Origin: Desulfobacula sp. | Lineage (GTDB): Bacteria > Desulfobacterota > Desulfobacteria > Desulfobacterales > Desulfobacteraceae | Assembly (NCBI RefSeq): GCF_030611305.1 | Contig: NZ_JAUWQB010000010.1 | Coordinates: 1-59,214 of the forward strand | DNA: 59,214 bases | Direction of reading: 5' to 3' | In this document: positions 11,096-13,966 of the stretch, in pieces | How the letters are laid out: each line of letters begins with the position of its first letter | How positions within the stretch are numbered: the first letter of the stretch is position 1 | Made by a program: the position numbers and the translations under genes | The notes under the pieces: model-generated | What the model saw: the letters and a program-made list of their open reading frames with translations, nothing else | Databases searched by the model: none | What the model was told of the DNA's origin: nothing

Positions 11096-12274
11096 ATGAA
11101 TTTGTTTGCTATATTGTCAAATATCGGATTGCCGGATATTCTTGATATTTTGTTTATTTCGATTGTCTCCTATCAGTTTTATATCTGGTTTTGGGGCACC
11201 AAGGCTTTCAAAGCCCTGATTGGCATTGTTCTTTTAAGCGGGGTCTTCATTGTGGCCAAATCCTGGGGACTTTTTCTAACCACCTGGGTGTTTCAGATTT
11301 TGTGGCAGGTCTTTGTGATCCTCTTGATTATCTTGTTTCAAAGAGAAATCAGGCAAATGCTTGAGCGGTTTAACCCCCTGAAAACTATAGGATTTAAACA
11401 TAAATCAGCAGCCGATGGCTGGGTTCCGGCGTTTGCAGGCTGGGCGTTTGATGTGGCAAAAAAAAGAATCGGCGCGATCATTGTTTTTGAAAGAACAGAC
11501 CTTGTATTTGATTTGATCACAAAAGGGATTTCCATGGAATGCGACCCTCAACCTGAAATATTGGGCTCCATTTTTTATAAAGAATCTCCTCTGCATGACG
11601 GGGCTATCCTTATTTCCAAAGGGAAAATTTTAAAAACATCCTGCTATCTGCCCTTATCTGCAAGAGAAGATTTGCCCCAGGAATGGGGAACAAGACACAG
11701 GGCCGCTCTAGGGCTGACTGAACAATGCGATGCCTGGGTGATGATTATTTCAGAGGAAAGAGGGGAAGTCTCCTTTGCTGTTGATAATGATATTCGAAAA
11801 GTGAACGATGAAAAAGAGTTGGTTGCTCTTCTTGAGGACGCGGTCTTTGACTTTAAAGAGACAGATACGGATGTTAAAGAAAAGATAAAATTTTGGTTTA
11901 CCAGGCGATATAAAATTAAAATAATAGTTTTTGCTCTGGTTTTTATTATGTGGCTGCTTTTTGCAGGGCAACAAAATTTTGAAAAGAAAATCAATCTGCC
12001 GCTTAACTTCAGAAATACCCCGGCAGGGCTCATGGTATCTCAGCCGGTTGATCCAAAAATTTCTATTATCTGTCGCGGACTTAGGAAAGATGTCAGCCTG
12101 TTGGATGAAAATAATATCATCACTTCTATTGACTTGTTTTCAGCAAAGTCCGGGACATCCTTTTACAATATTACCACGGGAAATTTAACACTACCCAATG
12201 ACAGAGTTCACATTGTACATATCACCCCGGCAAGGATTGAGTTGACACTTGGAAAGAGACCAAAATCAGATTAA
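11096..12274 (+). CDS. cdaA: Diadenylate cyclase (CdaA type) fused to a YbbR domain
   Basis: Membrane enzyme making cyclic di-AMP from two ATP. Residues 10-85 hold three transmembrane helices. The DAC domain (about 100-240) has both catalytic motifs: D168-G-A in HDGAILI and R200-H-R-A-A in GTRHRAAL. After the DAC domain come a fourth helix (about 275-291) and an extracytoplasmic domain (297-386) that I recognise as a single YbbR repeat. In Firmicutes the YbbR protein CdaR is a separate gene next to cdaA and regulates it; here the two are one polypeptide of 392 residues. GGAGAAAGG precedes the ATG. It converges on hgcB, 32 bases away. Confidence 0.88.
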   Translation: MNLFAILSNIGLPDILDILFISIVSYQFYIWFWGTKAFKALIGIVLLSGVFIVAKSWGLFLTTWVFQILWQVFVILLIILFQREIRQMLERFNPLKTIGFKHKSAADGWVPAFAGWAFDVAKKRIGAIIVFERTDLVFDLITKGISMECDPQPEILGSIFYKESPLHDGAILISKGKILKTSCYLPLSAREDLPQEWGTRHRAALGLTEQCDAWVMIISEERGEVSFAVDNDIRKVNDEKELVALLEDAVFDFKETDTDVKEKIKFWFTRRYKIKIIVFALVFIMWLLFAGQQNFEKKINLPLNFRNTPAGLMVSQPVDPKISIICRGLRKDVSLLDENNIITSIDLFSAKSGTSFYNITTGNLTLPNDRVHIVHITPARIELTLGKRPKSD

Positions 12275-12306
12275 AGAGAAAAAGAGCTATTGTTTCATTC
12301 CAGTGC

Positions 12307-12597
12307 TCAGCAGCACTCGCCACTGCCACAGGAGGCGTTTTCTTTTCCTTTTATCCAAACCTGGATAATATAGGCGGCTCAGCCGACACCCGGATTGACG
12401 AATATGGCCTGGGAAGGACAATTGTTAACACAGGCACCACATTCCATGCAGGCATTAAAATCAACAATATGGGCTTTGTCCTGCTTCATTTCAAAAACTG
12501 CTTGAGGACAGACTTCGGTGCACAAGCTACAGCCGATACATTTTTCTTCATTGAGTACCAGGGTTGATACGTCATCTAAATATTTTAAATTTTCCAT
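12307..12597 (-). CDS. hgcB: HgcB mercury-methylation ferredoxin, probable selenoprotein (UGA codon 73)
   Basis: HgcB supplies electrons to the corrinoid protein HgcA during methylmercury formation. Two 4Fe-4S motifs are visible: Cys20/23/26/30 and Cys50/53/56/60. The frame meets TGA at 12381-12379, codon 73, right after FVNPGVG. Read through, it continues AAYIIQVWIKGKENAS and CGSGECC to a TGA at 12309-12307. The 96-residue product matches known HgcB length (about 95) and ends in the vicinal Cys pair typical of HgcB. Codon 73 is where HgcB has its conserved extra cysteine, so Cys-to-Sec replacement is the best reading. A SECIS-like hairpin follows the TGA. The start has AAGGA 9 bases upstream and is 23 bases after hgcA. 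Annotation pipelines would truncate it to 72 residues and lose the C-terminal cysteines. Confidence 0.88.
12351..12381 (-). promoter_or_regulatory. SECIS-like element after the UGA codon of hgcB
   Basis: On the minus strand the UGA is followed by a 10-base spacer, then UUAUCC (12368-12363), loop AGGUUU (12362-12357) and GGAUAA (12356-12351): a perfect 6-bp stem. The loop starts 16 bases after UGA. Bacterial SECIS hairpins lie within the coding region shortly after UGA and carry a G in the first two loop bases; the E. coli fdhF element has loop AGGUCU starting 17 bases after UGA. Position and loop sequence agree closely. SelB binding has not been shown. Confidence 0.75.
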
Positions 12598-12620
12598 ATT
12601 TAAATCCTTCAGGGTTTAGG

Positions 12621-13763
12621 TCAAAATGCAGAATATATCCAGAGCCCGGATGAAATTACCAGGCAAACCAATTGCACAGGGAGGTACCGTTTCATTTCTT
12701 TTTCAACCCCTGAGGGTGACGTAAACGGTGTTGCCCCGGTAAAATTCATAGCCAGATAAGAACTGATGGTCACGCTGAATAAAAAAAGTGCCAGCAATCC
12801 TGCAAAGCTACTAATGGCAAATGATATTATAGTCATCAGGGGTATGGCAAAAATACTTCCGGTAATGATTCCCTTGAGAGCAAATTCCCTGGATGGGATA
12901 AAAGGAAGCAGGACCGGGGTAACAAATGCACCTGAAAATATTCCTGCCGAAAGGGCAAAAATAGAAATTATCCCTCTTTCCCAAGCCCCGGAAAAAGAAA
13001 AAATATCCGGTCCAAAACCGGAAATGATGAACAGAATAAGTGCTGTGAGCAAGGCTGGTTTCAGCACGATTTGAATCTCTACAGGTGCCAGGATGAACCG
13101 TTCATACAGCTTAAATGTGACCTGTCTCATCTTTTTATCCGCTTTTCTGTTATTTTTTAGAAAAATCGGGATATCTTTAGCCCGTATCGGACCATACACC
13201 ACCCTGAATCCGGACTGCTTTTTGACATCTCTTGCCGCTACGCCTGTCGCTCCCAGTTGAGGAACAATGACCCGTTTATGATCCACGATCTTTTCAAGGG
13301 AGCAGTCTTTAATCTTTTTCACAAGTTCCCGGGTTGAAAAGGTTCCCTTCCCTGCCGCGCACCATACATTGATCCCTTTTGTATCCAGTACCAGAATCCA
13401 TGCATCGATGTCATTAAGTTCCTTTCGTAAATGATCAAACGTTAATTTAAAATTTGCAGTAACAAGAACCTCGGAATTTTTATCCGGTTTTCCGATGGCG
13501 TAAAGTCCGGGAGCCACTGTATAGGTATGCCGATTGATGCCGCACCTTACGTAAAAGGTTGAAAAAAGGTCTTTTTTCCCAAGCTTTGATTTGATGATGG
13601 GAATAAGCCCTGCATCGGTTTTAATAAATCTGTTCACATAGGAGCACAGTTTAAACCCTGGTTTCTCATAATCTGCCATGGGGTTGGAAAGTTCAGTCGA
13701 GCTGCTTAAAGAGGCCTCATCCATGGAGGACAGGATATTAACGCCGGAGGTTGATCTTTTCAT
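12621..13763 (-). CDS. hgcA: HgcA, corrinoid mercury methyltransferase
   Basis: HgcA transfers a methyl group from its corrinoid to Hg(II). The diagnostic cap-helix motif NVWCAAGK is at residues 132-139, with Cys135 as the predicted cobalt ligand. Residues 40-200 form the corrinoid domain; four or five transmembrane helices follow from about 230 to 380, with the conserved MNFTGATPFTSPSGVEKEM near the end. At 380 residues it is about 40 longer at the N-terminus than the Desulfovibrio protein, where the ligand is Cys93; the Met codons at 14 or 29 are alternative starts. The annotated start is kept because its ATG overlaps the stop of the HMA gene (ATGA), which suggests coupling. hgcB follows 23 bases downstream. 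Confidence 0.95.
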   Translation of the reverse strand: MKRSTSGVNILSSMDEASLSSSTELSNPMADYEKPGFKLCSYVNRFIKTDAGLIPIIKSKLGKKDLFSTFYVRCGINRHTYTVAPGLYAIGKPDKNSEVLVTANFKLTFDHLRKELNDIDAWILVLDTKGINVWCAAGKGTFSTRELVKKIKDCSLEKIVDHKRVIVPQLGATGVAARDVKKQSGFRVVYGPIRAKDIPIFLKNNRKADKKMRQVTFKLYERFILAPVEIQIVLKPALLTALILFIISGFGPDIFSFSGAWERGIISIFALSAGIFSGAFVTPVLLPFIPSREFALKGIITGSIFAIPLMTIISFAISSFAGLLALFLFSVTISSYLAMNFTGATPFTSPSGVEKEMKRYLPVQLVCLVISSGLWIYSAF

Positions 13764-13966
13764 GCCCTGTATCCGGCCTCATTTATTTTTTTAATCGCTT
13801 TGTCAACAAGTTCTGAATTATCAGCATTAAAAGATGCCTTTTTTGCATTAAGATCAACAGATACATTGGAAATGCCGTCTATTTCTTCAAGAGTCTTTTG
13901 GACCATTCCCGAGCAATGGCCGCAGCTCATACCTTCTACATTCAAAGTTACTTTTTGTGAAGCCAT
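13760..13966 (-). CDS. Small heavy-metal-associated (HMA) domain protein upstream of hgcA
   Basis: A 68-residue single HMA domain with GMSCGHC (Cys15 and Cys18), as in CopZ, MerP and P-type ATPase N-domains, which bind soft metals through the two cysteines. There is no signal peptide, so it should be cytoplasmic, unlike periplasmic MerP. Its TGA overlaps the hgcA ATG by the ATGA arrangement, and AGGATGG precedes its start. The family alone would suggest a copper chaperone. The context, first gene of an hgcA-hgcB operon, makes delivery or buffering of Hg(II) for methylation an attractive inference. No copper ATPase gene is nearby. Confidence 0.85.
   Translation of the reverse strand: MASQKVTLNVEGMSCGHCSGMVQKTLEEIDGISNVSVDLNAKKASFNADNSELVDKAIKKINEAGYRA

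What the first reader, a model, noticed from the sequence alone, without database searches (positions are those of the whole stretch)
12307..12597. Selenocysteine in HgcB: UGA replaces the conserved Cys73
Seen: the hgcB frame has TGA at codon 73, continues in frame for 23 codons with HgcB-like sequence and ends in the CGSGECC vicinal Cys pair; total 96 residues. Known: HgcB has about 95 residues, two ferredoxin clusters, a conserved extra Cys (position 73 in Desulfovibrio desulfuricans ND132) and a C-terminal Cys pair needed for methylation. Inferred: the UGA is read as selenocysteine, placing a residue with very high Hg(II) affinity where the thiol normally acts. I know of no described selenoprotein HgcB. 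Standard annotation would truncate it and could miss the mercury-methylation potential.
Basis: partly seen in the sequence, partly recalled or inferred. Interest (0 to 1): 0.95.

Follow-up and report, generated by a model that had tools for sequence, protein, structure and literature searches.

The report
Selenocysteine version of mercury-methylation ferredoxin HgcB
A sulfate-reducing bacterium appears to make one half of its mercury-methylating enzyme with selenocysteine in place of a key cysteine; this kind of selenoprotein is already in print, and here it is the only form seen in a whole bacterial family and may have reached a second lineage.

Summary
In detail: hgcB (minus strand, 12307-12597) has TGA at codon 73 (12379-12381) and ends in CGSGECC. 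Selenocysteine is very well supported. In the family, 55 of 86 genomes gave an hgcB hit and all 55 have TGA at this codon. A 7-bp hairpin with a G-containing loop 17 nt after the UGA is in 64 of 64 Sec-type genes, with frozen synonymous codons. The genome has selA, selB, selD and tRNA-Sec. The novelty claim fails: a 2026 review lists HgcB (NF040864, GVGU) as a selenoprotein, crediting Haft and Gwadz 2023; a 2024 paper cites the same work. Not seen in the passages I read: fixation in the family; Sec-HgcB in 8 genomes of other families of the order but in no other of 114 phylum-sample genomes whose match covers the site; one Sec clade on the HgcA tree for every placed Sec form but one; and that one (G614) joining a Cys-type HgcA and HgcB amino half to a Sec-type tail (an earlier quick tree did not reject one clade). 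Nothing here detects selenium.

The parts
12307..12597 (-). hgcB, 96 residues with Sec at 73, stop TGA at 12307-12309
   Evidence: NF040864 121 bits
12379..12381 (-). in-frame TGA, codon 73, aligned with the conserved Cys73; context GVG-U-AAYIIQVWIKG
12351..12368 (-). bacterial SECIS-type hairpin: 7-bp stem UUAUCCA/UGGAUAA, 4-nt loop GGUU, loop 17 nt after the UGA
   Evidence: fold of the window region; same stem in 64 of 64 Sec forms
12310..12315 (-). C-terminal Cys95-Cys96 pair
12621..13763 (-). hgcA (corrinoid protein, NVWCAAGK motif with Cys), 23 nt upstream of hgcB
   Evidence: NF040863 435 bits; translation
13760..13966 (-). heavy-metal-associated (HMA) domain protein with GMSCGHC; its stop overlaps the hgcA start (ATGA); probable first gene of the operon (inferred from position)
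   Evidence: PF00403 57.9 bits

Best explanation
hgcB here encodes a selenoprotein form of the mercury-methylation ferredoxin HgcB. Ribosomes reach UGA at codon 73; SelB with Sec-tRNA(Sec) is recruited by the hairpin that begins 10 nt after the UGA and inserts selenocysteine; translation goes on for 23 codons to the C-terminal Cys pair. Sec73 then does what Cys73 does in other HgcB proteins. In a published model this residue sits at the start of the C-terminal extension, within reach of the C-terminal pair, and was proposed to receive methylmercury after methylation on the HgcA corrinoid; a selenolate there would bind Hg(II) or CH3Hg+ more strongly than a thiolate (general chemistry, recalled). 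Shown here by sequence: the TGA, its conservation, the hairpin, the Sec machinery and selection on the tail. Inferred: decoding as Sec, and the role of the residue. The Sec forms form one HgcA clade apart from one chimera-like locus, which suggests one main Cys-to-Sec change and a second, later acquisition.
For: TGA aligned with the conserved Cys: 64 Sec-type and 119 Cys-type unique hgcB sequences read (the reading pattern accepted only C or TGA at the site). Family: 55 of 55 hits have TGA. Hairpin: 7 of 7 pairs in 64 of 64 Sec forms, against 3 of 119 Cys forms, which are 3 of the 40 Cys forms with the same YIIQ residues. Ile codons +4, +5 and +9 are ATT, ATC and ATA in 64 of 64, although Ile at the same positions in Cys forms varies (62 ATC/18 ATT/6 ATA; 68/25/8; 26/15/7) and the Sec genes' own upstream codons use all three. 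The hairpin meets the published loop, stem, spacing and G rules. selA 600 bits, selB 349, selD 370 and tRNA-Sec 76.5, all above cut-off, in the same assembly. The genome's own selD has an in-frame TGA followed by a similar sequence, ATCCA-GGGACGC-TGGAT (judged by eye). Cys73 to Ala abolishes methylation in vivo in ND132 (PMC7305189, passage).
Against: No direct evidence of selenium. The stem bases never vary, so no compensatory change can be counted, and the one variable pair tested (7-36) gave p = 0.06. In one search, 10 of 64 Sec forms have a 42-nt energy above the -7.5 kcal/mol limit of the published model (the window's is -9.0). Fold of the window region against shuffles: z = -1.88, 10 of 200 shuffles as good. 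tRNA-Sec was found in 55 of 63 Sec-HgcB genomes (stricter filters; five of the eight misses are under 90% complete, but G079 is rated 100%) and in 16 of 17 Cys-HgcB genomes, so its presence does not discriminate. The window's genome and most relatives are drafts.
Confidence: 0.94

Rival explanations
1. UGA is a true stop and the 72-residue ferredoxin is the product; the tail is a relic.
For: A standard ORF call ends there. Four relatives have odd tails (L010 ERS, L013 GCG, L018 CCIG then TAG, L021 ACCCN) and L115 has a second in-frame TGA before its CC.
Against: 59 of 64 Sec forms still end in CC; synonymous change dominates past the hairpin; in the family no TAA or TAG stands at the codon in 55 of 55 hits. 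A 72-aa product would lack residue 73 and the Cys tail, both important for methylation in ND132 (PMC7305189).
Confidence: 0.03
2. UGA is read through with an ordinary amino acid (leaky suppression or a reassigned code).
For: No call speaks for it directly; any readthrough would keep the tail under selection.
Against: The codon lines up with Cys, which Sec commonly replaces; the hairpin fits the bacterial SECIS model; sel genes are present; hgcA and hgcB themselves end in TGA, so UGA also serves as a stop here.
Confidence: 0.02
3. Sequencing or assembly error, a Cys codon misread as TGA.
For: Draft assembly.
Against: TGA at this codon in 64 unique sequences from 63 genomes, including the single-contig genomes G045 and G046.
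Confidence: 0.005

Closest known systems
Selenoprotein HgcB, NCBIfam NF040864, motif GVGU, WP_250697400.1 (Haft and Gwadz 2023, as listed in PMC13188914)
   Same: Same protein family, same GVGU motif
   Different: Nothing that I could establish; the 2023 paper is not held, so its organism list and any SECIS analysis were not seen
Cys-type HgcB, as in Desulfovibrio desulfuricans ND132
   Same: Two CxxCxxCxxxCP motifs, extra residue at 73, C-terminal Cys pair, hgcA next door (ND132 features from PMC7305189)
   Different: Cys instead of Sec; in the Cys forms read here Ile codons after the site vary and the full 7-bp stem is rare (3 of 119)
Sec-containing SelD of the same genome
   Same: In-frame TGA followed by an ATCCAGG...TGGAT stretch
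   Different: Unrelated protein

Membership tests
HgcB (NF040864) | Score over the curated family cut-off | tested here: met
   121 bits against 99, codon 73 read as C
HgcB (NF040864) | Two CxxCxxCxxxCP cluster motifs | tested here: met
   C20-C30P and C50-C60P in the translation
HgcB (NF040864) | Extra conserved Cys about 12 residues after the second motif | tested here: inconclusive
   Position 73 is TGA; met in substance only if UGA is decoded as Sec
HgcB (NF040864) | At least one Cys in the C-terminal tail | tested here: met
   CGSGECC, if the UGA is read
HgcB (NF040864) | hgcA next to it | tested here: met
   NF040863 435 bits, 23 nt upstream
HgcB (NF040864) | Mercury methylation activity | not testable with these tools
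   Needs the organism or the purified proteins
Bacterial selenoproteins | In-frame UGA aligned with Cys of homologues, conserved in relatives | tested here: met
   64 TGA and 119 Cys sequences at the same site; 55 of 55 hits in the family
Bacterial selenoproteins | bSECIS: loop 3-9 nt with G in its first two positions, stem 4-16 bp, UGA-loop distance 16-37 nt, energy at most -7.5 kcal/mol (PMC13188914) | tested here: met
   Loop 4 nt (GGUU), stem 7 bp, distance 17 nt, -9.0 kcal/mol for the window's 42 nt; 10 of 64 Sec forms miss the energy limit
Bacterial selenoproteins | selA, selB, selC, selD in the genome | tested here: met
Bacterial selenoproteins | Selenium in the protein | not testable with these tools
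   75Se labelling or mass spectrometry needed

The most novel reading that the evidence does not exclude
Sec at HgcB 73 was acquired twice: once in the ancestor of the Desulfobacteraceae-type hgcAB, where it became the only form seen, and once in a Cys-type lineage (G614, L180), either by transfer of just the UGA-SECIS tail into a resident hgcB or by convergence on a hairpin that the conserved YIIQxWIKG residues of Cys forms already almost encode (24 of 40 such Cys genes have 6 of 7 stem pairs).
Probability: 0.55. Interest if true: 0.5.

Novelty: already known. Interest (0 to 1): 0.4.

Why it matters
Residue 73 is essential for methylmercury formation in ND132, so a lineage in which it appears always to be selenocysteine is a natural test of what that residue does and of whether selenium supply bears on methylation. 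Gene callers that stop at UGA give a 72-residue ferredoxin and hide the Cys tail. The frozen hairpin gives a DNA signature (the pattern) that finds Sec-type hgcB directly. The general fact is already in print; the family-wide fixation and the second acquisition are the parts that may add to it.

Tried and rejected
Rfam at a permissive threshold listed five chance-level hits in 11800-13000 (E 0.46 to 6.9), none a Sec element. Five phylum-sample hits flagged '1 TGA' (G311, G124, G298, G362, G350) looked like further Sec-73 forms; reading them showed Cys at the site and the TGA in the tail. In G311, G298 and G362 it looks like the ordinary end; in G124 (L119) and G350 (L122) it stands where relatives have a tail Cys, see Noticed in passing. 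G650 in the order sample also has Cys at the site, and so do G257 (TAG) and G750 and G597 (TAA in the tail). Lower-stem covariation (pair 7-36): not significant, p = 0.06. Sec in HgcA: every HgcA found by motifs that accept C or U has Cys (57 Sec-HgcB and 110 Cys-HgcB loci; 51 and 81 with another motif); the hgcA stop is TGA in some relatives and TAA in others, so it is a stop. A quick tree that included L180 (50 Sec and 55 Cys rows) did not reject one Sec clade (AU p = 0.741, the held tree scoring higher); the careful tree did (p = 0.0046). That second test came after the first tree and used a chosen subset (32 of 63 Sec and 35 of 110 Cys HgcA rows), so its p-value is post hoc. DNA identity of the 5' part of L180 was not decisive (0.745 to the best Cys, 0.699 to the best Sec; L068, inside the Sec clade, is equally ambiguous). 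The viral-contig scan with the Sec-HgcB pattern found nothing. The window pattern had the spacing wrong by one base and tests nothing. No structure prediction was run.

Full report
What is there. The window is contig C55 of a 3.57 Mb draft genome (159 contigs, 97% complete). Genomes of the same genus code share hgcB DNA with records titled Desulfobacula (NCBI lineage Desulfobacteraceae). On the minus strand, hgcA (12621-13763) is followed after 23 nt by hgcB (12307-12597). hgcB has 96 residues if codon 73, TGA at 12379-12381, is read; it ends in CGSGECC and a second TGA. HgcB scores 121 bits against a cut-off of 99 and HgcA 435 against 275. A heavy-metal-associated domain protein overlaps the start of hgcA.

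Conservation of the TGA. In the genus, 20 of 26 genomes carry hgcB and 20 of 20 have TGA at this codon. In the family, 55 of 86 genomes have an hgcB hit over the cut-off and 55 of 55 have TGA, each read at GVGU. At most 52 candidates a genome were scored, so copies may be missed: G071, without an HMM hit, has the Sec pattern at a contig edge, and G061 has it twice. In a sample of 395 genomes of the phylum, 116 had hgcB. Five other than the window's own were flagged with TGA; all five have Cys at the site and the TGA in the tail. G332's match stops before the site. So none of the other 114 whose match covers the site is Sec-73. In an order sample, 165 of 389 had hgcB (the row list was cut). Ten places outside the family were flagged with TGA; nine loci in eight genomes (G605, G704 twice, G660, G493, G565, G554, G614, G524) are Sec-73 and one, G650, is not; G750 and G597, flagged with TAA, have Cys. 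A pattern search of 389 genomes of the class gave 62 genomes: 54 of the family and the same eight.

The SECIS. After the TGA every one of 64 Sec-type genes can form TTATCCA/TGGATAA with a 4-nt loop starting GG (AG in one, L113), 17 nt after the UGA. This matches the published bacterial model in loop size, G position, stem length and spacing (PMC13188914, passage); 10 of 64 miss its energy limit. The codons are frozen: ATT 64/64, ATC 64/64, CAG 63/64, ATA 64/64, while codons just outside (Gly +11, Ala +15) vary, and Cys forms use other Ile codons at the same positions. Because the stem never varies there is no covariation evidence; the lower stem gave p = 0.06. The genome's own selD has an in-frame TGA with a similar stretch behind it (judged by eye).

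Machinery. selA, selB, selD and tRNA-Sec are present over their cut-offs. tRNA-Sec was found in 55 of 63 Sec-HgcB genomes and 16 of 17 Cys-HgcB genomes: necessary, not diagnostic.

History. In an HgcA tree of 56 Sec-HgcB and 55 Cys-HgcB loci (the 55 nearest of 110) the Sec rows are one side of a branch, SH-aLRT 100. That set lacked seven Sec loci whose HgcA did not match my motif, L180 among them, and L019, dropped because its HgcA looks frameshifted. With L180 (G614) added, a quick tree put L180 among Cys rows but did not reject one clade (p = 0.741). The careful tree of 67 rows put L180 next to G650 of the same family code (support 99/84), rejected one Sec clade (AU p = 0.0046, post hoc), and held the other 31 Sec rows together at 100/99.7. 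HgcB agrees: on the 26 residues before the site L180 scores -12.4 bits, towards Cys-type (next lowest Sec form -0.9, median +16.9), while its tail lies within the Sec range; 63 of 64 Sec forms have ECGACV, L180 has ECGACA. So L180 is a Cys-type HgcA and HgcB amino half with a Sec-type tail: tail transfer or convergence. The other eight Sec loci outside the family (seven genomes, G704 having two) nest inside the Sec clade (seven, L178), as whole-operon transfer or mis-binned contigs would give.

How it likely works. In ND132 Cys73 to Ala abolishes methylation and loss of both tail cysteines cuts it by 95%; Cys73 was modelled at the start of the helical extension and proposed to receive CH3Hg+ from the tail (PMC7305189, passages). 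HgcAB was later reported to use SAM to methylate the corrinoid (PMC11588087, passages). Sec73 most likely takes the same place as a stronger mercury ligand. This functional step is inference.

What is known. PMC13188914 (passages) lists 'Mercury methylation ferredoxin HgcB, NF040864, GVGU, WP_250697400.1' and attributes it to Haft and Gwadz 2023; it also lists HgcA with motif CU. [quoted passage not shown] Haft and Gwadz itself is not held: nothing of it was read. Searches for hgcB with selenocysteine, hgcB with selenoprotein, and hgcAB with selenocysteine returned 1, 3 and 0 papers. I saw no statement on family-wide fixation or a second acquisition in the passages read, but the primary paper may hold one.

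Noticed in passing
window 13760-13966 (-): HMA-domain (GMSCGHC) small protein whose stop overlaps the start of hgcA. An HMA ORF was seen upstream of hgcA in 3 of 64 Sec loci (L002, L013, L020) and an ArsR-type regulator with a CVC or similar motif in 13 of 64, neither in 119 Cys loci, by strict motif search of the 0.3-1.5 kb held upstream of hgcB, so absence is weak evidence.
   Followed up: partly
L122 (G350) and L119 (G124), hgcB tails: Cys at site 73, but an in-frame TGA in the tail where relatives have a Cys: PPD-U-SDGCGDG...SCC in L122 against PPQCGCSGSGCC in L127, and SCC-U in L119 against SCCC in L126. A hairpin follows in L122, but its loop lies 11 nt after the UGA, outside the 16-37 nt of the model. 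One sequence each: a second Sec site, a shortened tail or an error.
   Followed up: partly
L010, L013, L018, L021, L115 (hgcB tails): Five of 64 Sec forms do not end in CC: ERS, GCG, CCIG then TAG, ACCCN, and L115 with a second in-frame TGA before a CC; errors, decay or alternative tails.
   Followed up: no
G061:C1:4038800 and 4045998; G704:C32 and C426: Two Sec-type hgcB copies in one genome, in G061 about 7 kb apart.
   Followed up: no
L180 (G614:C6): Chimera-like hgcB: Cys-type HgcA and amino half, Sec-type tail and hairpin.
   Followed up: yes
G004, G013, G016, G022, G023, G025 (same genus): No hgcB hit, although G023 and G025 are rated 100% complete: the gene pair is patchy inside the genus.
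   Followed up: no
G000:C34, selD (L043): SelD itself has an in-frame TGA in this genome (SGUAAK), with a stretch behind it like the hairpin of hgcB.
   Followed up: partly
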